Positions 41,279 to 61,560 of a DNA stretch of 64,000 nt are shown here, one piece after another. The notes under the pieces are model-generated. The model searched no databases. It was not told where the DNA came from and worked only from the letters and a program-made list of their open reading frames with translations. The DNA comes from Nitrosomonas cryotolerans ATCC 49181. GTDB lineage: Bacteria > Pseudomonadota > Gammaproteobacteria > Burkholderiales > Nitrosomonadaceae. The first letter of the stretch is position 1; the number at the start of each line of letters is the position of its first letter. The translations under genes and the position numbers were made by a program. Location of the stretch: NCBI RefSeq assembly GCF_900143275.1, contig NZ_FSRO01000001.1, positions 558,001 through 622,000 on the forward strand. Direction: 5' to 3'.

Positions 41279-41355
<77 letters not shown>

Positions 41356-41451: not shown

Positions 41452-41655
41452 GAAGCCTTCGAAAAACCCCAATAGTTGAAAAATTAACCATTTATAATCA
41501 ATAGCATAAAACTAAGACCGCTGCATAACTGTGTTTTTAAGCTGTTCTGATTACTTGCAGCATTGATAAATCAAACACTTAAAACCTTGCCCAGCCCGAG
41601 ATAACCAGTTATGCAGCGGTCTTAAACTTCTGGTGGGGATTTTTGGAAAAGTCTC
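41452..41655 (+). repeat. MITE family A, copy 4, split by a family B insertion
   Basis: Ends GAAGCCTTCGAAAAA and GGAAAAGTCTC are diverged forms of the family A ends. Inside it, 41514-41623 is a family B element with duplicated AAACT on both sides. Removing the 110-bp insert and one AAACT leaves exactly 89 bp, the family A length. It borders the IS5 transposase fragment on the right. Confidence 0.9.
41514..41623 (+). repeat. MITE family B (nested)
   Basis: A 110-bp element with perfect 18-bp terminal inverted repeats AAGACCGCTGCATAACTG and CAGTTATGCAGCGGTCTT. It is flanked by a 5-bp duplication AAACT (41509-41513 and 41624-41628). No coding capacity. It inserted after family A copy 4 was in place. 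Confidence 0.93.
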
Positions 41656-42010
41656 AAGATATTTGTTCGGAGGGAGCGATACATCTGATTTTCGCCCCTG
41701 GCCCCGGCGGCATGGGGATGAACCTTGCAGTGATTGGCATCAATCATAAGCCATTCGTAATCCGGATCGTCAATCAAGATTTCTAGTAATTTTTCCCAGA
41801 TGCCTTTGTCGCACCAACGGATAAAACGGCGGTGCGTGTCGCTCCAACCCCCATAACCTGGCGGCAGACCCCGCCACGGTGTGCCCGTGCGTATGATCCA
41901 GAAAATAGCATTAATAAACCGGTAGTTATCTTTAGCTGCTCCTCCCCCAACGCCTTGGCAAACAGGCAAATGAGTCTTAAGCAGTGCCCATACTTCATCC
42001 AATACATTAT
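41656..42010 (-). pseudogene. IS5-family transposase fragment (N-terminal third)
   Basis: Minus-strand translation gives NVLDEVWALLKTHLPVCQ, FINAIFWIIRTGTPWRGLPP, THRRFIRWCDKGIWEKLL and DYEWLMIDANHCKVHPHA, the conserved start of IS5/IS1031-group (DUF4096-type) transposases. The DDE core after HAAGARGENQ is gone. Its N-terminus is interrupted by MITE A copy 5 and its C-terminal side by copy 4. Dropping copy 5 and one ATTAT rejoins a TATGGCAGG start region to CATAATGTATTGG, which reads RHNVLDEVW. Confidence 0.85.
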
Positions 42011-42099
42011 GAGGCTTTTGAAAAACCCCAATAGTTGAAAAATTCACTATTTATAATCAATAGTCTAAAACTACTAACGAGGGCTTTTATAAAAGTTTC
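42011..42099 (+). repeat. MITE family A, copy 5
   Basis: An 89-bp copy with slightly diverged ends (GAGGCTTTTGAAAAA and ATAAAAGTTTC), flanked by 5-bp ATTAT on both sides (42006-42010 and 42100-42104). It is inserted in the N-terminal codons of the IS5-family transposase fragment, same orientation as copies 1, 2 and 4. Confidence 0.88.
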
Positions 42100-45851: not shown

Positions 45852-48359
45852 ATGAAAAGTACACGTTTGTGGTTATTGACTTTGCTTTCTTTGCTTGCAC
45901 TAATGCTGCAAGCTTGCACAAATTCAAGTATATGTGGAGATAAATCAGGAGAAATTCTCGATGAAGCGCTTTGTGTAGGGAGAACTGCTGATACTTTACA
46001 GAGTGCTACTGAAGACTATTTTGTGGATATGGATTATGGAATTAGTAAAGATCCAGCAGAAATTGTAAAACGCCTTACTCCATTTATTCCTGGCGTCTCA
46101 GAAGAAGATGCCGCTAATGCAATTATTCGAGGTCGCAATAATTGGATAGTTTGGACTGCTGGTAATGACGCGCTTTGGGATGAGCTTTCCAGGGCTAGCT
46201 TTGGAAACCTCGATTTTCTGAAAACCCTTTCAAATCATCCTAACTTAAAGTTCAGTCGCGATAACCGGTGGCAATATTTAGGCCTGGTTAATGAGCCATG
46301 TTATACCAAAGGTGATAAGCCGCGAGAAGATCGTTACGGTTTATATTTGGATCAACGTGATTCAAGTTGTGAGTTGGATCCATTTGAAAATGCTGAAAAA
46401 TATCCTGGAATCGAAATTGGAGCCAGGGGAAAAAATATAGCCGTAGGCTCCTACTACGGTTATGGCACAGGTATTGTCGGTTTACGATTGTTTCCCAATC
46501 CAGATTTTGATGAAAAGGCTGAAGCCGAATGGGATGCTGAGAAATACTACAACGATCCGAGTTACTATAATAGAAAGGATTTGGTAAAGCCATATCGTGT
46601 GGGTATGTCCTGTGGTTTTTGTCATGTGGGCCCCAATCCTACCAACCCGCCAAAGGATCCAGAAAATCCTACGTGGGCTAACTTAAACTCCAATCCTGGT
46701 GCCCAATATTTCTGGATTGATCGTATCTTTATGTGGAATGCGGAAGTGAGTAATTTCGCATTTCAACTATTCCATACCTCGCGACCAGGTGCCTTGGATA
46801 CTTCTTTCATTTCCTCAGATTATATTAATAATCCTCGAACTATGAACGCAATATATAATCTAGGAGCGCGACTTGAAATTGCGACAAAACTGGGTAAAGA
46901 AATACTAAGGGATGGTAGTCTGAATAACAAGCAATTCAATCAATTGGATGGTATACCTGAAAATAGTGCCCTTAATCAATTCTATAAAGAACCAGAAACT
47001 GTTTTTACACCAAGAGTTTTGAAAGATGGCGCTGACTCTGTAGGCGCATTGGGTGCTCTTAATCGAGTCTATATCAATATTGGTTTATTTAGCCAAGAAT
47101 GGCTACAGCACTTCCGACCTTTGGTGGGAGGTAAGAAAATTACTCCCTTTGAAATTGAAGTGGCGAGAGAAAACTCCAGTTATTGGAATGCGAATGAAAT
47201 GCAAACACCTGATCTTGCATTATTCTTACTTGCCTCGGCGCGTCCGGATTATTTAAAAGATGCAGCTGGGGGTTCTGTCCACCTGACTGATGATGTTGCT
47301 GTGTTGGATCGAGGCAAGCAAGTATTCGCTGAGACTTGTGCGCGTTGTCATTCAAGTAAGTTACCCGATAAAGCATTTGATTTTTTCCCTGATAATGGTT
47401 GCATAAATGGTAATTATCTAAAATGCTGGAGTAATTACTGGGATTGGACTAAATCCGATGAATTCAAGGAGAAAATGCAAGAAATTGTTAAAGCTGATAA
47501 TTTCTTAGAAAATAATTTTCTTTCGACAGAAATTCGAATTCCCGTAACCCATTTGGAAACAAATGCTTGCAGTCCATTGGCAACCAATGCTGTGAAAGGA
47601 AACATCTGGGACAACTTTTCCTCGGCTTCCTATAAAAATCTACCTTCTGTCGGTGCCATGATTGTGCAGAATCCCTATACAGGGGAAGCATCGCAATACA
47701 CGCTACCTGCCGGCGGTGTGGGATACACTCGACCTGCGTCATTGATCAGTGTGTGGTCTTCAGCCCCGTTTCTACTCAACAACACATTGGGCGAGTTCAA
47801 GTGGTCAGGCTCGGTGGATGATCGGATGGCCTCTTTCAATAATTCTATCGAACAGCTTTTATGGCCTGAAAAACGTAATGGCAATTTTACGGTGATTACC
47901 AAATCTGGTAAGACTCATCCAGGTGAGATTGATGGGACTACGGTCACAAGTTTCGTAAAAATAGACTCAGGCTACTTACCTGATTTTCTACAACCTTTGA
48001 CAGGAATACTCAGCCGTTGGCTTCCTTGGATATTTAGTGATGATGGAATACAGATTGGTCCTATTCCAAAGGGGACCCCTGTAAGCTTGATTTCTAATAT
48101 AGATATGGAGCAACGAGACAAAGTATTTAAAGTGTTGTTGAAATTGAAAAAAGATCTAAAAGCTCTCCCGGAAAATGCGACTGATGAGCAAGCTAGGCAA
48201 GTATTTGCTAATTTGTTAGATCCGCTAATTAAAGTTAGCAAGTGTCCTGATTATGTGGTGAATAAGGGTCACTATTTCGGTACAGACTACTTGGGAGTAG
48301 AACCAGGATTGAACGATGAAGATAAGTTCGCATTGATTGAATTTCTGAAAACCTTCTGA
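45852..48359 (+). CDS. Di-heme c-type cytochrome lipoprotein, peroxidase/RoxA-like (large)
   Basis: An 835-residue exported lipoprotein. The ATG at 45852 with a G-rich site upstream gives signal peptide MKSTRLWLLTLLSLLALMLQ with lipobox Cys 22 (LMLQAC). Two heme sites: MSCGFCHVG (about residue 255) and ETCARCHSS (about 497). The C-terminus has RPASLISVWSSAPFLLNN and FALIEFLKTF, which are shared with the second cytochrome at 54098. Likely anchored in the envelope facing the periplasm. The substrate is unknown. The GMC gene starts 18 bases after the stop codon. Confidence 0.8.
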   Translation: MKSTRLWLLTLLSLLALMLQACTNSSICGDKSGEILDEALCVGRTADTLQSATEDYFVDMDYGISKDPAEIVKRLTPFIPGVSEEDAANAIIRGRNNWIVWTAGNDALWDELSRASFGNLDFLKTLSNHPNLKFSRDNRWQYLGLVNEPCYTKGDKPREDRYGLYLDQRDSSCELDPFENAEKYPGIEIGARGKNIAVGSYYGYGTGIVGLRLFPNPDFDEKAEAEWDAEKYYNDPSYYNRKDLVKPYRVGMSCGFCHVGPNPTNPPKDPENPTWANLNSNPGAQYFWIDRIFMWNAEVSNFAFQLFHTSRPGALDTSFISSDYINNPRTMNAIYNLGARLEIATKLGKEILRDGSLNNKQFNQLDGIPENSALNQFYKEPETVFTPRVLKDGADSVGALGALNRVYINIGLFSQEWLQHFRPLVGGKKITPFEIEVARENSSYWNANEMQTPDLALFLLASARPDYLKDAAGGSVHLTDDVAVLDRGKQVFAETCARCHSSKLPDKAFDFFPDNGCINGNYLKCWSNYWDWTKSDEFKEKMQEIVKADNFLENNFLSTEIRIPVTHLETNACSPLATNAVKGNIWDNFSSASYKNLPSVGAMIVQNPYTGEASQYTLPAGGVGYTRPASLISVWSSAPFLLNNTLGEFKWSGSVDDRMASFNNSIEQLLWPEKRNGNFTVITKSGKTHPGEIDGTTVTSFVKIDSGYLPDFLQPLTGILSRWLPWIFSDDGIQIGPIPKGTPVSLISNIDMEQRDKVFKVLLKLKKDLKALPENATDEQARQVFANLLDPLIKVSKCPDYVVNKGHYFGTDYLGVEPGLNDEDKFALIEFLKTF

Positions 48360-48377
48360 TTGTAAGGAGTCAGTAAC

Positions 48378-50249
48378 ATGCAATCTGAATTTGAATATAT
48401 TGTTGTCGGATCTGGTGCGGGTGGCGGTACAGTAGCTGCCCGTTTGGCAGAGAATGGTCAGAAGGTACTGGTGCTTGAATCCGGTGGTGATCCAGTTGTG
48501 CTGCAAGGTGGCGATGCCGTATCTTCAGACAATCGCCTACCGGAGGATTATGAAGTACCTGTTTTTCACGCGATTTCTACCGAAAATGAGGCAATGAGGT
48601 GGGATTATTTTGTGCGTCATTATGAGAATGATGAGCAGCAAAAAAAAGATCCTAAATATACCTCTACTTATCAAGGCGAGCGAGTGGATGGCGTGTTATA
48701 TCCCAGGGCTGGTTGCCTGGGAGGCTGTACCGCTCACAATGCAATGATTACAGTTTATCCGCATAATGATGACTGGAATTATATTGCAAACTTGACAGGG
48801 GATTCTTCCTGGAGTGCTCGGAAAATGAGAAGCTATTTCCAGAAATTGGAGAATTGCAATCATCGTCCTTTTCTTCGGCTTCTCTCCAAATTAGGCATTA
48901 ACCCTTCTAAACACGGTTGGGATGGATGGTTGCATACGGAAAAGGCGATCCCCAAAACCGCTTTAGGTGACAAGTCATTGGTAGCAAGTCTTGCGTTATC
49001 AGTAAAAGAAGCTTTTAAAGAACTCAGCGAACCACTCAAACGCATAGGGTGGCAACTGGAAGGAGTCGGGGATCCCAATGATTGGCGGTTAGTGGAGGAT
49101 AGTTCCACTGGGTTGCGTTATCCACCACTTGCTACTAGAAATCATCAGCGCATGGGAACTCGTGAAAGATTACTGGAAGCTCAAAAGGCGTATCCAAAAA
49201 ACCTTACCATTGAATTAAATGCGTTGGTGACCAGGATTCTTTTTGATGAAGAGAATCGCGCTATTGGCGTGGAATATATAAAAGGCTCGCGTCTTTACCG
49301 TGCTTGCAGTCAGCCCAGGAATGAAGCTGGTGAGCGGTGTGTTGTAAAAGCCAGTAAGGAAGTTATTTTATCAGGAGGCGCTTTCAATACGCCACAATTG
49401 CTCATGCTGTCAGGTATTGGACCGAGAGAGGAGCTAGAGAAACACGGAATAGAGGTTAGAGTTGAGTTGCCTGGAGTTGGGCGCAATTTACAGGACCGCT
49501 ATGAAGTAGGTGTCGTTAATCGTATGAATTTCGAAAGCTGGGAGGTACTGGAAGGGGCGAAATATGCTAAAGGCGACCCTCAGTATAAACAATGGGCGGA
49601 GAAGCGCGAAGGTGTTTACACCTCAAATGGTGCAGTACTTGCTGTGATCAAACATTCTATGAAGGAAAGACAGTCACCTGATCTATTTTGCTTTGCATTA
49701 CTAGCGCTATTCCGCGGTTACTTTCCTACGTATTCTCGCTTGACCGCTGAACACCTTAATTATCTCACTTGGGCAATTCTTAAAGCGCACACTAACAACA
49801 CCGCTGGCTTTGTTAGTTTGAAATCGATAGATCCTCAAGATACGCCTTACATCAATTTTCGCTACTTTGAAGAAGGAAATGATAACGCTGGTGAGGATCT
49901 GAAATCGGTAGTGGAGGGAATAAAATTCATTCGAGAGATTACGAAGCCATTAAAAGCACAGGGCTTAATCGCTGAAGAGGAATTACCTGGAGAATCGATT
50001 CAATCGGATGAGGATTTAAGTGAGTTTGTTAAGAATCAGGCTTGGGGTCATCATGCCTCCTGCACCTGCTCAATAGGAGCCGAGAGCGATAAGATGGCAG
50101 TGTTAGATAGTAAATTTCGCGTTCGAGGCACGAAAAATTTACGGGTGGTTGATGCCTCTGTTTTTCCCAAGATTCCTGGTTTCTTTATTGTCAGTGCCAT
50201 CTATATCATCGCCGAAAAAGCAGCAGATGTTATTTTGAAGGAAGGCTAA
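48378..50249 (+). CDS. GMC-family flavin oxidoreductase
   Basis: A 623-residue FAD enzyme. The Rossmann motif VVGSGAGGGTVAARLAENG lies at residues 9-27, with VLVLESGG after it; LSGGAFNTPQLLMLSGIGPR is GMC signature 2, and WGHHASCTCSIG plus PKIPGFFIVSAIYIIAEKAA hold the catalytic His/Asn region. GMC enzymes oxidise alcohols, sterols or sugars. The neighbouring cytochromes are plausible electron acceptors. No signal peptide is seen, so it is either cytoplasmic or exported by a partner. Same strand, 18-base gap from the cytochrome gene. Confidence 0.88.
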   Translation: MQSEFEYIVVGSGAGGGTVAARLAENGQKVLVLESGGDPVVLQGGDAVSSDNRLPEDYEVPVFHAISTENEAMRWDYFVRHYENDEQQKKDPKYTSTYQGERVDGVLYPRAGCLGGCTAHNAMITVYPHNDDWNYIANLTGDSSWSARKMRSYFQKLENCNHRPFLRLLSKLGINPSKHGWDGWLHTEKAIPKTALGDKSLVASLALSVKEAFKELSEPLKRIGWQLEGVGDPNDWRLVEDSSTGLRYPPLATRNHQRMGTRERLLEAQKAYPKNLTIELNALVTRILFDEENRAIGVEYIKGSRLYRACSQPRNEAGERCVVKASKEVILSGGAFNTPQLLMLSGIGPREELEKHGIEVRVELPGVGRNLQDRYEVGVVNRMNFESWEVLEGAKYAKGDPQYKQWAEKREGVYTSNGAVLAVIKHSMKERQSPDLFCFALLALFRGYFPTYSRLTAEHLNYLTWAILKAHTNNTAGFVSLKSIDPQDTPYINFRYFEEGNDNAGEDLKSVVEGIKFIREITKPLKAQGLIAEEELPGESIQSDEDLSEFVKNQAWGHHASCTCSIGAESDKMAVLDSKFRVRGTKNLRVVDASVFPKIPGFFIVSAIYIIAEKAADVILKEG

Positions 50250-50520
50250 ATAGTTAACAGTATGTTTTTCTCTAACATGAGGTTTTAGCAACTTCCTCTT
50301 ACAGTTCTTCGATAGATAGGTGTGCAGACTGAAGTTAGCCTCATTTATAGGCGCAAGTCGTACGAAACGTTTTTGAATTACCGTATATGAATGTGCCGGT
50401 TTTTACTTGCTGTCAATATAGGTCTTTGGTCGATTAAGGAATAATACAACGCAAAATTTAGTCAAATTGTTGTGCTTTTTAACGATACTTTATGATAAAT
50501 CTTATTGAAAGGCGGATCAC

Positions 50521-52905
50521 ATGTTCCAAAAAGTGAAAGCACTCATAAAAAAGATTGGTTTTGATGGAACAGCCAAAGCAGATGAAGTTATAGTTAAAGA
50601 AAGGCGGCATATCGAGGAAGAATTTGCCGATCAGTTTGACAGCAATTTCAAAGATTATCTTAATAACGATTACAAGACTTTTGTTAAAAAAACCTACTCA
50701 GAATACGTACGTAAGCATCACCCTGAAATAGATCATGGAGCTTACCCCCACCCCAAGAGACCCTGGTATGGTCTAGCTCTATCTGGAGGAGGAATTCGTT
50801 CAGCATCATTTTCCATCGGCGTTATCCAGGGATTAAATAAGCGACTTTCTGATAAAAAACCAACAACCATGGACAAAGTTACTTACCTGTCAACCGTGTC
50901 TGGCGGGGGTTACGCTGGTTCAGCTCTAAGTTGGTATCAGAAGGTTCATAAGACATTCCCTTTTGGCGATATCAACACATTTTCCGGTAGTCAGAATAGT
51001 CGCGAACCAGAAGACCAGGTGCTGAGCTATATTCGTCAGCATGGAAAATATTTAATTCCCAAACCGTTAGGATTCACTTCTCTTATTGGCGTAATTCTGA
51101 TGAGTGTTTTGTACTCAATTGTCGCTTATACATTGTTATTTAGCCTGGTAATGTTTCTGCTGCAGGTTATTGCATCTTCAGAGATTATCACCAGCATTCT
51201 TAATGCTAACAATATTGTTGACGCAGCTAACTTCCGCCAATCTCTTTTGGGAATGGCGCCATCTGCCATAGATGGTACTGTTATCAATGGGGGGAGAATT
51301 GATTTTGTAATTTTTTTCCTGTCAATCAGTTTCATTCTGACGATAGCATTTTCTGCCATTGTATTTTTTTATGGATTCAGGAGTTTTATAGGATATTATT
51401 TTTCAATATCATATTGTTATCGAGTAAAGATTCAGGAAATACTGGGTGTGCTGTTGAAACTAATCATTGCTTCATTATTTTTTGCTGCGCTGCCATTAGC
51501 TGTTTTGCTTGTTTTTCGTGAAGAGCTGTCTATTAATCAACCGGGTGTCTGGGGTTCCATGATATCAGGCCTTGTTAGTATAACTTTGGCTATAAGGAAT
51601 TTTCGACAGGAAGCCGAGAGAAGTGACGGTAAAGAGAGGGTCATCGGTAAGTTGATAACAGCGCTAAGTATTTTAGTTTTTATATTTTTTATTTTATTAT
51701 TTTCTTATCTGATTGGCGAGATGATATATACAAGCCAAGATTCATTCTGGCCCATATTGATTGCTGCCTTCATCATTTCTATCATTGTTAACATTAACCA
51801 AATGTCTCCCCATAAAATGTATCGGGACCGATTGATGGAAACATTTTTAAAAGCTCCTCAAACGTCACCGACTGCGCCAATCTGTGAGCGAGGAAATGAA
51901 GCTGACAAAACGCTATTGTCCGACATGGCAGCCCATGGCAATTGGTCGCCTTATCAATTGATTAATTGTAATGTCATTCTCAACAATGCGATAACGCCCC
52001 ATTACCGTGGTCGGGTGGGAGACAGTTTTTTGCTTTCGCCGTTATTTTGTGGCAGCGCTGCTACGAATTATATTGCCACTGATCGTTTTTCTGGTGGCCA
52101 AATGACTTTGGCAACAGCGATGTCTATTTCCGGAGGGGCTGCAAATCCTCATTCGGGAGTTTCTGGTGAAGGTGAATCCATTAATCCGTTTGTAGCGTTT
52201 TTAATGACTTTTCTAGGCTTGCGCTTAGGATATTGGACTTTTAGTCCCGCCATTTCTTTAAGAATATTAAATTCAATTATACGCCCCAATTATATTGTTC
52301 CCGGGCTTGGTAGCTTGCTTAATTTTGGTCACTCTGAAAAAAGCATGTTTATTGAACTGTCTGATGGTGGGCACTTTGATAATACGGGCATTTATGAATT
52401 GGTACGTCGTAGAACGCCCGTGATTATACTAGCGGACGGTTCAACAGATTCTAATTTTACTTTTGATGATCTTGGCAGTGCTATTGAACGCATACGGGTA
52501 GATTTTGGCGTATCGATTCGTTTTCTTGATGAAGCTTTTGATCTCTCTGGGCTATTGCCCGGTAGCCAGGCTTCTGCCAGTACGAGAGGCGCTGAGATTT
52601 ACGATGAAAAATATAACTTGTCGGAACGGGGATACGCTATTGGTGACATTATTTATCCCGATATTTCAACAGAAGATGTAACAGAAAAAGCCTTTGTTGG
52701 CTTGTTCATATATATCAAGGCAACACTCACTCGTAATTTGCCTGGTGATTTATATGCTTATAGAGCCAGCCACCCCAGTTATCCGAATGAGCCGACTGCA
52801 GATCAATTTTTTGACGAACGGCAGTTTGAATCTTATCGGGAATTGGGCTATCAATTAACCAGTCAGCTTTTCAAAAATGAACAGGCTATGAAAAAATTAC
52901 CCTGA
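50521..52905 (+). CDS. Membrane patatin-like phospholipase
   Basis: A 794-residue protein with split patatin parts. YGLALSGGGIRSASFSIGVI at about residues 83-102 is the oxyanion glycine loop, STVSGGGYAGS the nucleophile elbow (Ser in VSGGG), and DGGHFDNTGIYELVRRR near residue 618 carries the catalytic Asp. Between them, about 180-430, lie at least six hydrophobic segments (FILTIAFSAIVFFYGFRSFI, LIIASLFFAALPLAVLLVF). It probably hydrolyses membrane lipids from within the bilayer. Preceded by a 270-base gap; ribosome site AAAGGCGG near -10. Confidence 0.85.
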   Translation: MFQKVKALIKKIGFDGTAKADEVIVKERRHIEEEFADQFDSNFKDYLNNDYKTFVKKTYSEYVRKHHPEIDHGAYPHPKRPWYGLALSGGGIRSASFSIGVIQGLNKRLSDKKPTTMDKVTYLSTVSGGGYAGSALSWYQKVHKTFPFGDINTFSGSQNSREPEDQVLSYIRQHGKYLIPKPLGFTSLIGVILMSVLYSIVAYTLLFSLVMFLLQVIASSEIITSILNANNIVDAANFRQSLLGMAPSAIDGTVINGGRIDFVIFFLSISFILTIAFSAIVFFYGFRSFIGYYFSISYCYRVKIQEILGVLLKLIIASLFFAALPLAVLLVFREELSINQPGVWGSMISGLVSITLAIRNFRQEAERSDGKERVIGKLITALSILVFIFFILLFSYLIGEMIYTSQDSFWPILIAAFIISIIVNINQMSPHKMYRDRLMETFLKAPQTSPTAPICERGNEADKTLLSDMAAHGNWSPYQLINCNVILNNAITPHYRGRVGDSFLLSPLFCGSAATNYIATDRFSGGQMTLATAMSISGGAANPHSGVSGEGESINPFVAFLMTFLGLRLGYWTFSPAISLRILNSIIRPNYIVPGLGSLLNFGHSEKSMFIELSDGGHFDNTGIYELVRRRTPVIILADGSTDSNFTFDDLGSAIERIRVDFGVSIRFLDEAFDLSGLLPGSQASASTRGAEIYDEKYNLSERGYAIGDIIYPDISTEDVTEKAFVGLFIYIKATLTRNLPGDLYAYRASHPSYPNEPTADQFFDERQFESYRELGYQLTSQLFKNEQAMKKLP

Positions 52906-53050
52906 GTTAAAAGTGAGATGTGCTATCAAAAATGGAGTCTGGAAGATATAGGGTTGTATCCGTCAGCGAAAATTGGATATTTCATTTGAAATACTCCTCG
53001 GATACTTCATTTAAAGAATTGTTCGACTAGCAACTGAAGGAGAGCAATAA

Positions 53051-53950
53051 ATGAGCCAAAGAGATTATCGCTATGATCGTTTAAAGAATCCATTTGAGCC
53101 TTTGGCGACCGGATTTATGCCGAATAATGCATTGTGCCTCGCTGCAGCCTCGAATTTAGCCTATGAGGAATCCGACTCGCTACGAGCACAAGAGGTAAAA
53201 AAATGGGGGTTCAGCAAGTTTAAAACTATTAATATCAATAAGAAGCCGTTCGTCGGTACTCAGGCATTTGTTTGCGCCGATCTCAATGTTCTAATGATCG
53301 TGTTTCGAGGCACTCAGCAGAGAGATCTAATGGACTGGCTGACCAATGTGCGGTTCAGGTTTGTCGATGGACCGATAAAAAATGTAGAGAATAAGGTTCA
53401 TCGTGGTTTTTACGAAGCACTGGATTTGGCATGGCCGCAATTAGAAACCGCGATCACAGATCTACGAACCCATGATCAGGCTATCTGGGTAACTGGTCAC
53501 AGCCTAGGTGCAGCTTTAGCCACACTGACCGCAGCACGTCTGAGTCTCGGAGATGGAATAAGGAATCAACAGTTTGATGTCCGAGGCCTTTACACATTCG
53601 GACAACCACGTACCGGGGACAGAAGCTTTGTGACAGCCTTCGATCAGCGGTTTGAAGGACGATCTTTTAGGGTTGCAAATAATAACGATATTGTGGCCGA
53701 AGTACCACCGATGGGCCTTTTGTTGAAATATTGGCATATTGATCAATTGATGTATATCGATGCGGACGGGAAGCTGCATCCGGGTATTGCTACTTACAGA
53801 CGAATTCTCGATGGGATAAATGGCCTACGTAGTGATTTCGGTAAATTTGGCCTCGATGCCTTAAAAGATCACGCTATGAATAACTATATGCAAGCCATGA
53901 GGAAATATGTGGAAGGCTTGGAGGTTAAGCAGAAAACTGCTCTTTCGTGA
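53051..53950 (+). CDS. Class 3 lipase (alpha/beta hydrolase)
   Basis: A 299-residue protein of the fungal-type lipase_3 family. VFRGTQQRDLMDWLTNVRF carries the oxyanion block, VHRGFYEALDLAWPQL follows, and TGHSLGAALATL gives the nucleophile Ser 151. Asp and His follow in NNDIVAEVPP and KYWHIDQL. No signal peptide is seen. It lies 145 bases after the patatin gene and is probably in the same unit. Confidence 0.88.
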   Translation: MSQRDYRYDRLKNPFEPLATGFMPNNALCLAAASNLAYEESDSLRAQEVKKWGFSKFKTININKKPFVGTQAFVCADLNVLMIVFRGTQQRDLMDWLTNVRFRFVDGPIKNVENKVHRGFYEALDLAWPQLETAITDLRTHDQAIWVTGHSLGAALATLTAARLSLGDGIRNQQFDVRGLYTFGQPRTGDRSFVTAFDQRFEGRSFRVANNNDIVAEVPPMGLLLKYWHIDQLMYIDADGKLHPGIATYRRILDGINGLRSDFGKFGLDALKDHAMNNYMQAMRKYVEGLEVKQKTALS

Positions 53951-54097
53951 GTTTTAAAAGGATTACCAGTATAAAACCTACGCTAGGAATTTATTGGCTC
54001 ATGATATTTAAGGGTTGTGATCAGAAAGAATGTTTATTTTTTCTTCTCTCTTTTGATTTTCTCGATTCTTAGCGTACTTTTAAAGAGGGTTTGTCTG

Positions 54098-55978
54098 ATG
54101 AAATTTAATCACTTTGGATTGTTATTGTTGTTGAGCCTTGTTGGACTTTCCTCATGCGCAGATAAAGAATTGCCAGAGTTGCAAGCTGTGCAAAAAGTAG
54201 TTTGGCTGGATCAAAATTGGGATGATGATCAACGGCAATGGTTCCATTATGTGTCACAAGGCACATCCAGCTTTTTTGTTCCGTATGAGTGGTTTATTGC
54301 GCTAGAACAACCAGGGTTAAGTTTGTTTAGCAAAAAATTAATCGTTGATGGTGATTTTTTAGAGCGTTTGGGATTTATTGCCGGTTCATTGGGTTTATAT
54401 AATAGCGCGAATCTACCTGTGGGTTTCGCAGTCGATCATGCAGCAACTGATCTGGAAGGTAAACCTTATCGTGCTATTGGCTTAACATGTGCGGCATGTC
54501 ATACGGGACAGTTGAATTATAAAGGCACAGGAGTGCGTTACGATGGTGGCCCCTCGATGATAAGTGCAAATAAGCTAATGAGCACTATCCTGGTTTCTAT
54601 GCTTGAAACTTATATTGGTCAGCGTCAATTTAAACGTTTTGCTGAGCGTGTATTAGCCGATCAATACTCAGATGAAGGCTTCAAGGAGTTACGTAAAGAA
54701 TATACGAAAGCATTTATGTTTTTAGTTAATCAGTTATTTCAATCTATTAGCATACAAAATCAAGGAATTATCAATAAAGACATTGAGCAAGGCCGTGAAA
54801 GTAAAGTACTGGTAGATATTGTAAAAAATGTGAAGGCCAATCTCGCGCAGACCGAGGGCTATGGGCGCACAGATGCGTTAAATAGAATTGGTAACCAAGT
54901 GTTTGCACTGGATGCTGAGCGGCCAGAAAATTTTGTAATTCCCAATGCTCCTGTGAGTTTTCCATTTATCTGGACGAGTTCCTGGTTTGCTTGGGTGCAA
55001 TATGATGCATCGATTATGCAACCGATGATTCGTAATGCGGGGGAGGCATTAGGCGTTGGCGCTTTGTTAAATTTAAATAAAGACAAGTCGAATAATTTTG
55101 CTTCTTCTGTGCATGTTATGAATTTGTATGCGATTGAAAAATCATTGGCAGGCGAAGCTGCACCGTTTGAGCATCGGCAATTTAGTGGATTGCGTTCCCC
55201 ACAATGGCCACAAAATATTTTGGGAGATATCGATCAACAAAAAGCGGCGGTAGGTGAGCATCTATATAAACAATATTGTCAGGAATGTCATTTGCCACCG
55301 GTAGGCAGCTCAGAGTTCTGGAATGAACAATATTGGTCCGTAAAAAATGCAATTGGTACACGATTATTGGACTTAAAGTTATTCTCAACCGAGCTCATTG
55401 GCACCGACCCTAATCAAGCAGCAGTGTTGGCTGATCGTACAATCAATACCATTGGTATGGGCCTGGCGACAGGTGTTTTTGCAGATGCAGAATGTGCTGC
55501 ATTGAATGTTACTGATGATGCAAAAGCCAACTTTGCATTATCGTTAGGAGCCGTTGTGCAGGAAACAGTTGATCTTTGGTATAGTAAAAATGGAATACCC
55601 AGTGAACAGCAGCAGGAAATGAACGGATATCTGCCTAATTGTTTACGTGCAACCAGAGGTTATAAAGCACGGCCACTTAATGGAGTTTGGGCAACTGCGC
55701 CATTTCTACATAATGGCAGTGTACCAAACTTATTTACACTGTTATCGCCTGTGAGCGAAAGGCCAAAGCAATTTTATGTGGGCAATTTGGAGTTTGATCC
55801 TATATTAGTTGGATATGAAACAGGGAAACGTAGCGGATTATTCTTGTTTGATACGACAAAAAATGGAAATTCCAATCACGGCCATGAATTTAACAATACA
55901 CAAAATAAAGGTGTGATTGGGCCGTTGTTGAATGTGGCAGAACGTGAGGCGCTGATTGAGTTTTTAAAGACCCTGTAA
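54098..55978 (+). CDS. Di-heme c-type cytochrome lipoprotein, peroxidase/RoxA-like
   Basis: A 626-residue lipoprotein. The ATG at 54098 gives signal peptide LLLLSLVGLSSC with the lipidated Cys; the earlier frame from 54017 is rejected. Heme sites are LTCAACHTG (about residue 131) and QYCQECHLP (about 397). GYKARPLNGVWATAPFLHNG and NLFTLLSPVSERPKQFYVG match a block of di-heme peroxidase/RoxA-type proteins. RoxA cleaves polyisoprene, but substrate cannot be read here. Ends ALIEFLKTL like the 45852 protein. Confidence 0.83.
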   Translation: MKFNHFGLLLLLSLVGLSSCADKELPELQAVQKVVWLDQNWDDDQRQWFHYVSQGTSSFFVPYEWFIALEQPGLSLFSKKLIVDGDFLERLGFIAGSLGLYNSANLPVGFAVDHAATDLEGKPYRAIGLTCAACHTGQLNYKGTGVRYDGGPSMISANKLMSTILVSMLETYIGQRQFKRFAERVLADQYSDEGFKELRKEYTKAFMFLVNQLFQSISIQNQGIINKDIEQGRESKVLVDIVKNVKANLAQTEGYGRTDALNRIGNQVFALDAERPENFVIPNAPVSFPFIWTSSWFAWVQYDASIMQPMIRNAGEALGVGALLNLNKDKSNNFASSVHVMNLYAIEKSLAGEAAPFEHRQFSGLRSPQWPQNILGDIDQQKAAVGEHLYKQYCQECHLPPVGSSEFWNEQYWSVKNAIGTRLLDLKLFSTELIGTDPNQAAVLADRTINTIGMGLATGVFADAECAALNVTDDAKANFALSLGAVVQETVDLWYSKNGIPSEQQQEMNGYLPNCLRATRGYKARPLNGVWATAPFLHNGSVPNLFTLLSPVSERPKQFYVGNLEFDPILVGYETGKRSGLFLFDTTKNGNSNHGHEFNNTQNKGVIGPLLNVAEREALIEFLKTL

Positions 55979-56132
55979 TGTAGTAAGCGGCGTGAAAAAA
56001 CTGATTTGATGTGAATGAGAGAAAATACACATTTTCTAACGCATTGAGGGATCGAAGCATGAATAAATAAGCGCGTTTGGCACCTGAGTGTATTTTTGAC
56101 ACTTGTTTACTTAGCTGTTTGCTTACAGGGGA

Positions 56133-59100
56133 ATGCTGATGTCAACCGATACAAGCGCTAAGACGACATCATCCAAGGCCTCAGTGCCACGCCGTCGGAT
56201 ATGGATTTGTGCATTTATTGTGGTGCTGGCGCTCATTTCTTTTGGCTATTTAAGCTTTATTAATAGTCGAGGCAATTTTGCCAATAGTGACTTTTATCGA
56301 GTCTTATACGAAGCCTCGAACAAGTTTAATGAAAACTTGAGTCAATTGGACAAAATGCATGTGAATGAAGAGAGTATTAACTCTATCCGCGCCCAGTTAC
56401 CCAGCTATCAGCGAAAACAAACAAACGATGCCCAAAATATTAATAAGAGCTTTAACTATTCTCTCTCCGGGCATAATATTTTAATTAAGAACGGGAATTT
56501 TGATGCTGAAGTTCGAGTTGCTGATATTTTACCCTCTCCAAAGCAAGGTTTTAGTCAATATCTTTTTGCGAACAGTGAAGGCAAAGTATTAGCCACCATC
56601 GGTGGTGAGAAGACCATATCAATTGACAATTTAACAAGTATCAACAAAGAAATAGAGAAGAGTAAACATCGTTATCAATTTAATTTGAAAGAGCCAGAAA
56701 GTAGTGATGGCGACGATGGTAGGCAACATTTGCCGAGCTATAGTAGCCATGTAGATATGAAATTATCTTATGGGGAATTTCGTATTTTTATCTTCCCTTT
56801 TTCTCTGGATACCGCGTTAAGTACAAAGCCTAATAATCAAAAACAAGAGAGTTCAAATAACGCTTCCCCAACCGGCACGATAAATACCCTCTACTTAGTC
56901 GGTCTGTTACCAAAACACAAACTACACATTGAGGATTCAGGTTACTGGAGCTTATCATTATTGTTGGTAACGCTAGTCAGTTTATTGTTTATTTGGACCC
57001 TACTGCGTCTATACCTGTTGCCTAAAAGCCAATCTATTACGCCATTGTATCGGAACTTTACCATGCTCTCGAGCTATGGTTTTTTCATTGTGCTTATCGC
57101 TCTCGTGCTGGCGTTCATGCAAAAAACTACCTTGCAGATGAGTAAAGATAGAGAAGCAGTCGCGTATGCCAAGAAACTATATACACAGCTAAATGGTGAT
57201 CTCATTAAGGTGTTTCAAGGTTTAGACAACTATCGGCCTTTCTATCACAATTTGTTAGCTGAGCTAGATGACTTCGCAACCCTTAATGCACCAAATGGAA
57301 CTGAATCCAATAACAATGTGTCAGCAACTGACCGTTTTTCACAGATGATCGAAAATTCTCTAGTCTCGTTAACTTCGCCATCCTGTAAGCCTCTATCCGA
57401 AAAAAAGTTACCAGGCTATGCATTTACGCCTCGTAAAGCCTATCTAATTACTTCTAATTGCTTAGTTGATACCAATGGAGAAGAGAATTGGCAAGTAACC
57501 GCAAAGCTGGATCAATCTGCAGAACAGATATTGCTTCAGGCGCAACAAAAAAACGTCAGCGGTGAAGCCGTTTTGAGTTTTATGGCAAGCAACCTGGATC
57601 TCAAGGTGGAATCTAACGGAATGGTTGAATCCCATATTGGCCAAGGGAAGCAAGGCTACCTGCCCGCTAATATACTTACTGTATTTGCCATCAATGATGA
57701 AGGTAATACCACACTACCACCAATATATTATCAAGAAAGTAATGCTCCACCACAGGTCGTAAATCTAATTGAACGAGACTATTACAAGAAAATCAGGGAT
57801 TACCAAGGTTGGCAGCTGTGCCTCGCCGCTGAGAAAAACAATAGTGATCAATGTGTTGAGTTCAATAACGTTTATCTCCAACGCTTGTTAAACATAAGTG
57901 ATGGCACCCGTGGCACTACCATTTCGATGCCGATGTATGATCCAAAAGACTCTGTCTTGCCAGGAAGCGGGTTAACCGCCTATATATTAGGTGCCGATGT
58001 AATTTTGCCTTCATTAAGCCTGGCGGCACCCGCCCCCTATGATTTCACCTACATGGTGATTGACCGTGATAGTGGTGGCGTGCTGTTCCATAGTAACGAA
58101 AGCCGGGCCTTAGTTGAGAACTTGTTCTATTCAGGTAACAATAAATCCAATTTAAGCCAATGGATCAAAGCCAGGTTAGATTATTACCCGGAATTGAGCG
58201 AGGAGATAATTGAGGGACATTACCATGGGCAGTCTGGCCGGTTTGTGTTAATTCCTGCCCCTATTGATGCCTGGGCAATTGTGATTTTTTATCCAAACGA
58301 TAGTCTCGACGCTTTAATGGCTAACCAGTTTTTGTTAATCAGCGTGAGCTTTGCTTTTGCACTACTGGTATTGGTCGGTTTGCTCACTGTTTGTCGCAAA
58401 TTTTCATACACCAACATTCTAAAAAACGAATTATTTATACGTGCAGGAATCAATGGTCGGATAATCATCATGGCCGGTTCAATAATGTTCAGCGCTATTT
58501 ATAGCCTCTATTATATTGGGCTATTATTTGATTTGGCCGAATTTTGGCAACAGTCAGTACGTATGTTTTCCTGGATACTGCCCAGTGCCGGGGTATTGAT
58601 ATTATTATTCTACCTATTCCGTATCTGCAATAAACGTCTTTCCGCTGCAGGTTCAAGCAGCCATATGTCAACAAATAAAAGTCTCAAAGCACTGTTTGCA
58701 GTGGCTATCCTGTTGTCAATGACGCACCTTTATTATTTGCATGCTGCAGCGCAGATGCCGCTAAAAGCACTGGGCTTTCATTATCAACAGGTTCATTGCA
58801 ATTGGCTCAATTACGAGCGTCAAGAAATGATCAAAATGGCGCTTAGCCGCTATCCGAATTCTATTACCCAGCAACGCATAGATCCGATCACACTATTACC
58901 CTTGACTTCCCAATTAGAAAATAATTTGAAGGATAAAATTACTTGTCAAATGCACTCATCCCAAGTCGAGCCCGACGACTACCTTAACCTCAGTTCTCTG
59001 GTGGGCGCCACTTATTTATGGCAATGGATAAATGCTTATTTCACCACTGGTTTTCCCACTGCTGCGCCACCCACAATACAAGAGGATTTAAAAATCTTAT

Positions 59101-60368
59101 GGCCAGTAGCAGGCTATAGCATTTTAATAGGGATCATTATTTGGATTTGGTTAGGATTTAACCGCCGCATGTTATGGACACGTTTGTATTATTCAGATGG
59201 CTTTTTGCAGCATATTGAAAGATTAACCAAATCAAAATCCACCCTGAAACAGGGCTCGCATCATACAAAGCTAATCATCGAATGCGATCGGGTAAAACTC
59301 AATGGCATCGGCCTGGCCTTGCTACTTAGAACCACCGTGATGCACGAAAGTAAATCTACAGAACCTAAGCTTAATAATTTATTAGTGGGCTTCGACACGC
59401 TCTACCAGCTCAGCCCATGTCTGCAAAGACTTGGTGCTAGCAATAGCTTCCTGCCCAATCTCAAGCTTAACGTCATAGAGGATGCCGATAGCAAAAAATT
59501 GGATGTGCAAATCTGGGATATCGAAACTTGCCTTGAACAGGCTCAATTTAGGCAACATCTGCTCGATTTGATTATGGAAATAAAATCACTCACCCTGGCG
59601 AATCAGCTAAATTCATTTACCATTTTTACCGGATATCACAGTTTGCAAAGAGTCAAAATGAAAGATCCTCTATTAGTAGAAGAGAGTTCAATCCTTGAGC
59701 ATGCGGAATATTTGTCATGGGCAGAGTGTCTGATGGATTTTAATGTGAAAGTGACGGATATCCTTGAGCGAGGAGTAGACAAGCGGTTGCTGGAACAGGA
59801 AATTTCTGATTTTCCAGAATTATTTTTCTTATCATCCGATGCCTTGGAATCCTCTGAAACTACAGAAAAAAGCCTATGGGATCAAGGTGAAGACTCGAGA
59901 ATTGGTGCTCAATGGACGACCATCAACTATATATTATTGCGCGCTGAGGCTCTTTATCGTTTTAAATGGGAGTCCTGCTCAAATGCCGAAAAACTAGCGT
60001 TGCTTAGCCTCGACAGGCAACATAGGATCAATCCATCCAATACTCAGATGATCGAACATTTGGCTGTGAATGGGTTAATTAAGGTTAAGCAAGGACATTT
60101 GGAGATCGCTAATAACAGCTTTGCGTACTTTATTCGCAATGCAGAAACCATAGACACGGTAAACCGTTTGGTGAGTCAAAGTGAAGCCGGTTTTTGGAAA
60201 GATTACCAATTGCCACTCGGCTTGTTGGTGATTTTAATTATCGGCGGCATCGCACTGACCTCTGGCGAATCTATTTATATTATTGCCGCCTCAGTAGCCG
60301 GTGTCATAGGTACCATTGCCAGTATCGCCACCAGTGCTAGCATGCTTAGAGGGCAGTTTAAGGAATAG
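56133..60368 (+). CDS. Very large multi-pass membrane protein with Cache-like sensor region
   Basis: A 1411-residue protein with no recognised overall family. About ten hydrophobic segments are seen: about 23-43 (WICAFIVVLALISFGYL), 271-293, 308-328, 731-755, 780-805, 812-832, 855-875, 1000-1020, 1358-1378 and 1385-1405. Residues 45-265 and 335-730 should be periplasmic; FTYMVIDRDSGGVLFHSNES resembles a Cache/PAS-like sensor. About 1025-1355 is cytoplasmic with no kinase, GGDEF or EAL motif visible. A second ATG at 56139 is equally good. Closest neighbour is the RoxA-like gene, 154 bases upstream. Confidence 0.7.
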   Translation: MLMSTDTSAKTTSSKASVPRRRIWICAFIVVLALISFGYLSFINSRGNFANSDFYRVLYEASNKFNENLSQLDKMHVNEESINSIRAQLPSYQRKQTNDAQNINKSFNYSLSGHNILIKNGNFDAEVRVADILPSPKQGFSQYLFANSEGKVLATIGGEKTISIDNLTSINKEIEKSKHRYQFNLKEPESSDGDDGRQHLPSYSSHVDMKLSYGEFRIFIFPFSLDTALSTKPNNQKQESSNNASPTGTINTLYLVGLLPKHKLHIEDSGYWSLSLLLVTLVSLLFIWTLLRLYLLPKSQSITPLYRNFTMLSSYGFFIVLIALVLAFMQKTTLQMSKDREAVAYAKKLYTQLNGDLIKVFQGLDNYRPFYHNLLAELDDFATLNAPNGTESNNNVSATDRFSQMIENSLVSLTSPSCKPLSEKKLPGYAFTPRKAYLITSNCLVDTNGEENWQVTAKLDQSAEQILLQAQQKNVSGEAVLSFMASNLDLKVESNGMVESHIGQGKQGYLPANILTVFAINDEGNTTLPPIYYQESNAPPQVVNLIERDYYKKIRDYQGWQLCLAAEKNNSDQCVEFNNVYLQRLLNISDGTRGTTISMPMYDPKDSVLPGSGLTAYILGADVILPSLSLAAPAPYDFTYMVIDRDSGGVLFHSNESRALVENLFYSGNNKSNLSQWIKARLDYYPELSEEIIEGHYHGQSGRFVLIPAPIDAWAIVIFYPNDSLDALMANQFLLISVSFAFALLVLVGLLTVCRKFSYTNILKNELFIRAGINGRIIIMAGSIMFSAIYSLYYIGLLFDLAEFWQQSVRMFSWILPSAGVLILLFYLFRICNKRLSAAGSSSHMSTNKSLKALFAVAILLSMTHLYYLHAAAQMPLKALGFHYQQVHCNWLNYERQEMIKMALSRYPNSITQQRIDPITLLPLTSQLENNLKDKITCQMHSSQVEPDDYLNLSSLVGATYLWQWINAYFTTGFPTAAPPTIQEDLKILWPVAGYSILIGIIIWIWLGFNRRMLWTRLYYSDGFLQHIERLTKSKSTLKQGSHHTKLIIECDRVKLNGIGLALLLRTTVMHESKSTEPKLNNLLVGFDTLYQLSPCLQRLGASNSFLPNLKLNVIEDADSKKLDVQIWDIETCLEQAQFRQHLLDLIMEIKSLTLANQLNSFTIFTGYHSLQRVKMKDPLLVEESSILEHAEYLSWAECLMDFNVKVTDILERGVDKRLLEQEISDFPELFFLSSDALESSETTEKSLWDQGEDSRIGAQWTTINYILLRAEALYRFKWESCSNAEKLALLSLDRQHRINPSNTQMIEHLAVNGLIKVKQGHLEIANNSFAYFIRNAETIDTVNRLVSQSEAGFWKDYQLPLGLLVILIIGGIALTSGESIYIIAASVAGVIGTIASIATSASMLRGQFKE

Positions 60369-60570: not shown

Positions 60571-61560
60571 TTATGTTGCCAACATAGGGATTTCTATTAT
60601 TCCTAATAATTGTTTGGTTTTGAAAGATAACTCGGTAATGTTGTCATAGATCCAATCTACAAATTCAGTTCCAACCATCGTTTTAATGTTATGTTCTTCA
60701 GCCAATTCAATTGATGATTCAGATAAATCGGCTGTTGTAATGAGCCATTTCTGATAGTTCCTTTCTTCAATATCATCATAGGCAATTAGCTGCTTAAGCC
60801 CATGTTCCCCTGATATATTTGAATGATGTTTAACCTGTATTACTAAATGTGACTCAGAAAATCTATCTACTTTGCTCGCTTTAATATCGATATCTGCAAT
60901 ATCTGAGGATTGATTTTTTGCTTGAATGCTTGCCGTATATCCTTCAATTTTTAGAAGCTCTTTAACTAATTGCTCTAAACCATTGCCACCCGCAGATAGC
61001 CATGTTGTTCCAGAAATTATAGACTTCAGTAAATTTTCCTTAAAAACGGTCTCAGCTTCAGAGATTTTTTCTAACAAATAAGTTTCTTGCTTATAAGCAC
61101 CATTTGACTCGATTGACTGAATAATTCTTTCAATTTCATCTTTAAATTCTGTTAAATTAGCATTAGCTGCTCTTATTTTTAGTCGACTCTCTAAACCTTG
61201 AGTTAATGTTTTTCTTGCTATTCTAAGAATATGACCATCATGCGTTCTGAACAAATTCACAGAAATAAGATTACAAGCTTGATCCTTAGCTAAACTAATA
61301 TCAAAACATTTTTTTCCATTAACTACACCAATAGTTATAGCTTTTGATAATGGAACAATAACAATATCCCCAGATTCCAAATTAAAGAATCTTTTAACTT
61401 TATTGGTATGTCTGCGAATACCTTGAGGATATTCCTGATTAATTTTTTGAATGACCTCGGGGGCAGTTTCATATTCTGAAAAGTTAACCTTAGCCCAGCC
61501 ATATCCTATGTAATCCTTATTGAGAACGGACATAGGACTTCTAACCATTATCACTTGCAT
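60571..61560 (-). CDS. Mrr-type restriction endonuclease-like protein
   Basis: A 329-residue protein. The C-terminal Mrr-cat domain (about 195-315) has AGGNGLEQLVKELLKIEGYT, DIADIDIKAS and HLVIQVKHHSNISGEHG, the (D/E)-x-(Q)xK nuclease motif with Asp and Gln-Val-Lys. Residues 1-190 form a separate domain (SGDIVIVPLSKAITIGVVNG) seen in Mrr-like proteins that recognise DNA. Mrr enzymes cut methylated DNA; no methyltransferase is adjacent, fitting a methylation-dependent type IV role. Directly downstream of an IS cluster. Confidence 0.8.
   Translation of the reverse strand: MQVIMVRSPMSVLNKDYIGYGWAKVNFSEYETAPEVIQKINQEYPQGIRRHTNKVKRFFNLESGDIVIVPLSKAITIGVVNGKKCFDISLAKDQACNLISVNLFRTHDGHILRIARKTLTQGLESRLKIRAANANLTEFKDEIERIIQSIESNGAYKQETYLLEKISEAETVFKENLLKSIISGTTWLSAGGNGLEQLVKELLKIEGYTASIQAKNQSSDIADIDIKASKVDRFSESHLVIQVKHHSNISGEHGLKQLIAYDDIEERNYQKWLITTADLSESSIELAEEHNIKTMVGTEFVDWIYDNITELSFKTKQLLGIIEIPMLAT

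What the first reader, a model, noticed from the sequence alone, without database searches (positions are those of the whole stretch)
45852..60368. Envelope lipid-oxidation cluster: two di-heme cytochromes, GMC oxidase, patatin, lipase and a giant membrane protein
Six same-strand genes combine lipid hydrolysis (patatin, class-3 lipase), flavin oxidation (GMC) and c-type electron carriers with lipoprotein anchors. The two cytochromes share a C-terminal block. Inference: lipids are hydrolysed, freed alcohols or aldehydes are oxidised, and electrons go to the respiratory chain. That would be unusual in an ammonia oxidiser and I know of no named system with this exact set. The membrane protein at the end may sense the substrate.
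Basis: partly seen in the sequence, partly recalled or inferred. Interest (0 to 1): 0.8.

Follow-up and report, generated by a model that had tools for sequence, protein, structure and literature searches.

The report
Mobile lipid-oxidation genes in an ammonia oxidiser
Inside a piece of imported DNA, an ammonia-oxidising bacterium carries a widely shared but little-noticed pair of genes (an unusual two-heme protein and a flavin enzyme), next to lipid-cutting and lipid-oxidising genes, which probably work together to make or process oxidised fatty acids.

Summary
The six same-strand genes are real, but they are not one conserved six-gene system. They sit on a 29.4 kb island at tRNA-Met in a Nitrosomonas; a 48-bp exact copy of the tRNA 3' half marks the far end. 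The core is a cytochrome-GMC pair found in several phyla: the GMC gene lies directly downstream in 57 of 68 examined loci with room. The window copy groups with Gammaproteobacteria, where a membrane patatin often follows. The second cytochrome is a RoxA/oleate-dioxygenase-type di-heme protein with the MauG motif. The first matches the RoxA fold best, but the MauG histidine is absent in all 122 aligned rows. The GMC keeps one catalytic histidine, has Phe where choline oxidase has Asn510, and lacks an export signal here (11 of 63 rows show a Tat-lipoprotein signal). The lipase and giant membrane protein accompany the pair in 0 of 80 loci. In a minority of loci the pair stands beside DyP-like, catalase-like, haem-peroxidase or lipoxygenase genes, which points to oxygenated fatty-acid (oxylipin or lipid-hydroperoxide) metabolism.

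The parts
41279..41355 (+). tRNA-Met (CAT); its 3' half (41308-41355) is the left end of the island
   Evidence: ARAGORN; 48-bp exact repeat again at genome C1:628753-628800, window-equivalent 70753, outside the window
41622..42047 (-). IS4/5-type transposase fragment (DUF4096)
   Evidence: Pfam PF13340
44612..45127 (-). transposase fragment (DUF772)
   Evidence: Pfam PF05598
45852..48359 (+). P0001: 835-aa di-heme lipoprotein (residue numbers below count from 45813, 13 residues earlier); RoxA-like fold; MauG-motif His replaced by Leu655; first gene of the conserved pair
48378..50249 (+). P0002: GMC flavoprotein, no export signal, catalytic His559 kept, Phe603 at the choline-oxidase Asn510 position; second gene of the pair
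50521..52905 (+). P0003: patatin-like hydrolase with about 7 hydrophobic segments between the Ser and Asp motifs (SGGGIRS, VSGGG, SDGG intact)
53051..53950 (+). P0004: class-3 lipase, no signal peptide seen; likely a passenger
54098..55978 (+). P0005: RoxA/FadCcp-type di-heme lipoprotein with MauG motif PFLHNGSVP (NF040606, PF21419)
56133..60368 (+). P0006: 1411-aa membrane protein, about 9 hydrophobic segments, weak Cache hint in relatives; likely a passenger
60571..61560 (-). Mrr-type restriction endonuclease, island cargo
   Evidence: Pfam PF04471
62236..63063 (+). DDE integrase-core (rve) transposase, island cargo
   Evidence: Pfam PF00665

Best explanation
Shown: a tRNA-Met island carries a widespread conserved pair (RoxA-like di-heme lipoprotein P0001 + GMC P0002) whose window copy groups with Gammaproteobacteria, followed, as in several of those relatives, by a membrane patatin (P0003); near by is a RoxA/oleate-dioxygenase-type di-heme lipoprotein (P0005). 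Inferred: the unit makes or processes oxygenated unsaturated fatty acids. P0003 (perhaps helped by the passenger lipase P0004) frees acyl chains from membrane lipid. P0005, in the periplasm, adds O2 to a C=C bond as P. aeruginosa 10S-DOX does to oleate, giving a hydroperoxy or hydroxy acid. P0001 and P0002 act on that product: P0002 interconverts alcohol and carbonyl (or acts on the hydroperoxide) with its single catalytic His, and P0001 is the redox partner or second-step enzyme rather than a MauG/RoxA-type oxygenase, because the MauG His is absent. In other lineages lipoxygenase, animal-type haem peroxidase, DyP-like and catalase-like proteins take the oxygenase and peroxide-handling places around the same pair. 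P0006 and P0004 are island passengers.
Against: No substrate or activity is shown. The window genome has no lipoxygenase and no 434-aa partner. In two of the four lipoxygenase genomes (G024, G038) the gene is on another contig. DyP-like and catalase-like are sub-threshold assignments. P0002 has no export signal while P0001 and P0005 look periplasmic, so a direct handover is unproven. P0005 homologs lie in only 6 of 80 pair loci, strong ones (55-56%) in two; six contig lengths shared between the P0001 and P0005 hit lists are only indirect support. VIA-align Z for RoxA is below 8, and Foldseek's only match had E 9. P. aeruginosa 10S-DOX itself was not compared directly. The family is patchy (5 of 368).
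Confidence: 0.5

Rival explanations
1. Lipid-peroxide detoxification: the unit removes hydroperoxides formed in membrane lipids under oxidative or nitrosative stress. The patatin cuts out damaged chains, the di-heme proteins act as peroxidases and the GMC recycles or completes the reduction.
For: Neighbours in some loci are DyP-like, catalase-like and haem-peroxidase proteins; P0005 belongs to a family named di-heme-cytochrome C peroxidase.
Against: Lipoxygenase beside or co-occurring with the pair makes hydroperoxides rather than removing them; the family is patchy (5 of 368 genomes), unlike housekeeping repair.
Confidence: 0.2
2. One reading: lipids are hydrolysed, alcohols are oxidised by the GMC, and electrons pass to the cytochromes and the respiratory chain.
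For: Conserved adjacency; in 11 of 63 rows the GMC looks like a Tat lipoprotein, so both partners would be periplasmic there; no + strand terminator-like site between the six genes.
Against: The window GMC has no signal; P0005 carries the oxygenase-type MauG motif; the lipase is beside the pair in 0 of 80 loci.
Confidence: 0.15
3. Cleavage of polyisoprenoid or other hydrocarbon double bonds (rubber-oxygenase-like), with the GMC oxidising the aldehyde or ketone products.
For: RoxA-like domain and fold; in the window genome's second locus two RoxA-like genes stand near a TonB receptor.
Against: P0005 scores 49.6-67.4 bits against RoxA/B/C cut-offs of 900-1000; heme spacing 263 (P0005) and 242 (P0001) is not RoxA's 199 (RoxA value from PMC4496055).
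Confidence: 0.1
4. Only the cytochrome-GMC pair is a unit; everything else is unrelated island cargo.
For: Tight gap only between these two; 0 of 80 for lipase and membrane protein; island with IS elements and restriction genes.
Against: Patatin recurs in 18 of 80 loci (13 directly after the pair) and in 2 of the 5 other carriers of the separate draw; P0005-like genes recur in some.
Confidence: 0.25

Closest known systems
P. aeruginosa oleate-diol synthase PA2077/PA2078 (10S-DOX and 7,10-DS; FadCcp subfamily)
   Same: Di-heme, periplasmic, RoxA-related, MauG motif P(Y/F)xHNGSVP and C-terminal His (P0005); heme spacing of P0001 (242) like PA2077 (245) (PMC4496055)
   Different: P0001 lacks the MauG His; both window proteins look like lipoproteins; a GMC partner is present (gene neighbours of PA2077/PA2078 not checked); sequences not compared directly here
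Rubber oxygenases RoxA/RoxB (4b2n)
   Same: Best fold match (P0001) and RoxA-like C-terminal domain (P0005)
   Different: Far below RoxA/B/C family cut-offs; other heme spacing
Bacterial di-heme cytochrome c peroxidase / MauG
   Same: Two c-hemes, MauG motif (P0005), second-best fold match of P0001 (1zzh)
   Different: About twice as long; P0001 lacks the motif's His
GMC oxidoreductases (choline oxidase, CapO)
   Same: Both domains, FAD motif, catalytic His (H559 aligns with H466 of choline oxidase); HxSC(S/T)C stretch as in CapO 8b7s
   Different: Conserved Phe603 in place of Asn510; genetic partner is a di-heme lipoprotein
Lipoxygenase / haem-peroxidase oxylipin pathways
   Same: Relatives of the pair stand beside such genes in some Nitrosomonas and Nitrosospira
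   Different: The window genome has no lipoxygenase; no description of a GMC + di-heme pair appeared in the listings of the paper searches run

Membership tests
NF040606 di-heme-cytochrome C peroxidase (RoxA-like) | P0005: score over the curated cut-off (150 bits) | tested here: met
   507 bits
NF040606 di-heme-cytochrome C peroxidase (RoxA-like) | P0001: score over the cut-off | tested here: not met
   31 bits
FadCcp (PA2077/PA2078 fatty-acid di-heme Ccp) | P0005: two CxxCH, MauG motif with His, distal C-terminal His | tested here: met
   CAACH162, CQECH425, PFLHNGSVP, GHEF at 622; feature list from PMC4496055
FadCcp (PA2077/PA2078 fatty-acid di-heme Ccp) | P0001: MauG-motif His | tested here: not met
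   Leu 111, Gln 6, Val 5 of 122 rows, no His; L655 aligns with the MauG His of P0005
FadCcp (PA2077/PA2078 fatty-acid di-heme Ccp) | Equivalents of RoxA Phe317 and Trp302 | not tested
   no RoxA or PA2077 sequence was aligned over that region
FadCcp (PA2077/PA2078 fatty-acid di-heme Ccp) | Converts unsaturated fatty acids to hydroperoxides or diols | not testable with these tools
   needs enzymology
RoxA/RoxB/RoxC rubber oxygenase | Score over the family cut-offs | tested here: not met
   P0005 49.6-67.4 bits against 900-1000
RoxA fold | P0001 structural match | tested here: inconclusive
GMC oxidoreductase | GMC_N and GMC_C domains over cut-off | tested here: met
   80.0 and 100.3 bits
GMC oxidoreductase | Second catalytic His/Asn (its role recalled) | tested here: not met
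   Phe603 aligned to choline oxidase Asn510; Phe in 62 of 63 rows
Patatin-like hydrolase | Oxyanion GGGxR, Ser-GG nucleophile, Asp-GG | tested here: met
   all three motifs in the window protein and the 16 relatives aligned ((V/A)SGGG at the nucleophile)
tRNA-borne genomic island | Direct repeat of the tRNA 3' end at both ends | tested here: met
   48-bp exact repeat 29,445 bp apart; second copy not a tRNA gene
tRNA-borne genomic island | Tyrosine integrase | tested here: inconclusive
   none among the proteins scanned; only IS-type recombinases seen; not every ORF was scanned

The most novel reading that the evidence does not exclude
The pair is the core of an undescribed, multi-phylum bacterial oxylipin module: a new RoxA-fold di-heme family that lost the MauG histidine works as the steady partner of a GMC subfamily with a one-residue catalytic site (His559, Phe603), and lineages plug different oxygenases into it (lipoxygenase, animal-type haem peroxidase, DyP-like, catalase-like or RoxA-like), moving it as mobile cargo into autotrophs such as Nitrosomonas.
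Probability: 0.4. Interest if true: 0.75.

Novelty: new variant of a known kind. Interest (0 to 1): 0.55.

Why it matters
Bacterial oxylipins are, to my knowledge (recalled), known from few pathways, the P. aeruginosa diol synthase being the best worked out. If the pair is a general partner of lipid oxygenases, its genes give a simple marker to find such pathways in many phyla, including ammonia oxidisers and methanotrophs, and a new active-site variant in two large enzyme families. Even if the function differs, a pair this strongly conserved, whose cytochrome reaches no Pfam or NCBIfam cut-off, is a clear gap in annotation.

Tried and rejected
A conserved six-gene operon: rejected, because lipase and membrane protein lie beside the pair in 0 of 80 loci. 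P0006 as the sensor of this unit: only 2 of 24 family members hint at dCache (best E 8.6e-4), and the only PDB match had E 0.05. P0001 as vertical inheritance in Nitrosomonadaceae: rejected (p-AU 4.4e-6; window plus 34 of the 79 other rows; the group was named after a first tree had been seen). The same test on all 80 rows did not finish. Rubber degradation: family scores too low. First fold of P0001, from 17 sequences, was useless (pLDDT 47.5); the second, from 122, was good. A profile of P0001 against solved structures found only weak pieces, mostly short cytochrome-c stretches (best E 0.09). The catalase-like neighbour (c2) has no Pfam, NCBIfam or PDB match of its own; it is called catalase-like because a 30%-identical relative in the window genome has a sub-threshold Catalase match. 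Promoter scan gave fewer sites than shuffles (30 against 42.9), terminator-like sites more (25 against 13.6), but all 14 + strand ones are inside genes. Rows dropped: the P0001 tree holds the window, 75 of the 80 named loci and 4 same-genus loci (5 named loci had no ORF passing my length filter); the GMC alignment holds the window, 58 of 80 named loci and 4 same-genus loci; the folding alignment A3 holds 68 locus proteins and 53 of the 120 listed homologs besides P0001. Literature searches bearing on the pair or its setting showed no paper on it in their listings (searches found none at all); only open-licence PMC papers are held.

Full report
WHAT IS THERE. All six ORFs exist at the stated places, on one strand. 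P0001 (45852-48359) and P0005 (54098-55978) each have two CxxCH motifs and lipobox-type signals; P0002 is a GMC flavoprotein; P0003 a patatin-like protein with about seven hydrophobic segments between its nucleophile and Asp motifs; P0004 a class-3 lipase; P0006 a 1411-aa protein with about nine hydrophobic segments and no Pfam match. Gaps are 18, 271, 145, 147 and 154 nt; no + strand terminator-like site lies in them.

ORGANISM AND ISLAND. One same-genus relative, G038, has a contig of 542,574 bases, the length of the named record L126 (Nitrosomonas sp. NEU_AOB_4), so the genus is taken as Nitrosomonas (inference). The cluster follows rpoD and tRNA-Met. The tRNA's 3' half (48 bp, exact) recurs 29,445 bp downstream outside any tRNA gene. 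Between the two copies lie transposase fragments, an Mrr nuclease, an SNF2 protein, an IS605 OrfB and an rve transposase. Similar tRNA-end copies follow the same tRNA in the three relatives that I fetched because hinted at them (G010, G016, G020), so this looks like an integration hotspot. No tyrosine integrase was found among the proteins scanned. In a tree of 80 rows the window P0001 groups with a gammaproteobacterial MAG (78% identity) and Marinobacterium; grouping it with the Nitrosomonadaceae copies (about 58-62% identity) is rejected (p-AU 4.4e-6, 35 rows; group chosen after the first tree).

THE CONSERVED CORE. A P0001 profile found 327 relatives in named genomes, of which the best 80 were kept. 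The GMC follows directly, on the same strand, in 57 of 68 loci with at least 1500 nt downstream (62 of 80 in all); in 8 of the 11 exceptions it is elsewhere in the locus and in 3 it was not found. Hosts are Pseudomonadota, Acidobacteriota, Myxococcota, Cyanobacteriota and Nitrospirota, many of them MAGs. In a draw of 369 genomes of the class, 5 of 368 others have a close P0001 (E <= 1e-80). The other 4 all have the GMC directly downstream; one of them also has an animal-haem-peroxidase-like gene and a P0005-like piece, and two have a P0003-like patatin. Cytochrome and GMC distances correlate over 60 pairs (r 0.66; highest of 999 shuffles 0.14).

P0002. His559 aligns with His466 of choline oxidase, and Phe603 stands where choline oxidase has Asn510 (that these two are the catalytic pair is recalled). 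WGHHAS is present in 62 of 63 rows and Phe603 in 62 of 63; the odd row, L080, looks frame-broken there. In 11 of 63 rows the N-terminus looks like a Tat lipoprotein signal (RR motif plus lipobox: Nitrosospira, Nitrosovibrio, Thauera, Cognatazoarcus, a Rhodocyclaceae MAG, two betaproteobacterial MAGs, a Myxococcaceae). The window copy starts at the FAD fold with no earlier start codon in frame (simple pattern matching, not a signal predictor).

P0003 AND P0005. Patatin relatives occur in 18 of 80 pair loci, 13 of them directly after the pair; catalytic motifs are intact in the 17 proteins aligned. P0005 is a clear NF040606/RoxA-like member with the MauG motif, as in 110 of its 120 listed homologs of 2669 found. 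Relatives of it lie in 6 of 80 pair loci, at 55-56% in L058 and L060 and weaker in four. Six contig lengths (59307, 36405, 39477, 88402, 18662, 5010) appear in both the P0001 and P0005 protein lists, which suggests linkage in more (indirect, compared by eye; 18662 is L060). PMC4496055 (abstract and two of three parts of the results read) describes PA2077/PA2078 as di-heme, RoxA-like, with the same MauG motif; PA2077 needs both heme His residues to oxygenate oleate.

THE SETTING ELSEWHERE. In 14 of 80 loci the pair is accompanied by three genes together: catalase-like (weak evidence), an unnamed 434-aa family and DyP-like (57 bits against a cut-off of 100.5). Lipoxygenase (PF00305) and an animal haem peroxidase occur in the same 4 loci (Nitrosospira/Nitrosovibrio), a second haem-peroxidase type in 3 and tyrosinase in 5. 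Lipoxygenase occurs in 5 of 81 genomes of the relatives set (0 of 14 controls); 4 are same-genus, and they are 4 of the 5 same-genus genomes with a close pair (Fisher p 2.6e-5, kinship not corrected; two of the four have it on another contig). The window genome itself has no lipoxygenase and no 434-aa partner. It does have a second locus with a catalase-like gene, two RoxA-like di-heme genes and a TonB receptor.

PASSENGERS. P0004 and P0006 are in 0 of 80 pair loci. P0006 relatives (64 proteins, the window's own included; names include Nitrosomonas marina, Aliiglaciecola, Paraglaciecola and Colwellia) occur in 2 of 80 relatives, G010 and G019, neither with a close pair; none of the other five genes is near in the stretches seen (in G010 only about 1.1 kb upstream is visible). 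Homologs of P0004 occur in 12 of 60 relatives, mostly weak; the closest, 70%, is split over two contig ends in G011.

MECHANISM. Shown: conserved pair, its active-site changes, place on an island, lipid-oxygenase company in a minority of loci. Inferred: acyl release by the patatin, O2 addition by P0005, and redox processing of the oxygenated lipid by P0002 with P0001. Direction of electron flow, substrate and location of P0002 in this lineage are open.

Noticed in passing
window 41308-41355 and genome C1:628753-628800: tRNA-Met downstream of rpoD looks like an island hotspot; tRNA-end copies also follow it in G010, G016 and G020.
   Followed up: partly
L144 6800-15364 (genome C1 2259800-2268364): Second locus in the same genome: catalase-like protein, two RoxA-like di-heme proteins in tandem and a TonB receptor.
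   Followed up: partly
L039:5054-6358 and relatives: A 434-aa family with no Pfam or NCBIfam match, found with DyP-like and catalase-like genes near the pair (15 of 80 loci).
   Followed up: partly
L101:50-3550, L039:14954-16651: Animal-type haem peroxidase and lipoxygenase-type genes in Nitrosospira and Nitrosomonas.
   Followed up: partly
window 56133-60368: P0006 family: giant membrane protein without Pfam match in the window copy, shared by Nitrosomonas and marine Alteromonadales, a Cache hint in 2 of 24.
   Followed up: partly
L093:14469-15509 and 8 other loci: DUF4331-like proteins (sub-threshold) near the pair in 9 of 80 loci.
   Followed up: no
L157, L158, L160, L049: More distant P0001-like proteins (about 27-39% identity) in other families of the order also stand near P0005-like genes (L049, L157, L160) or patatin-like genes (L157, L158).
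   Followed up: partly
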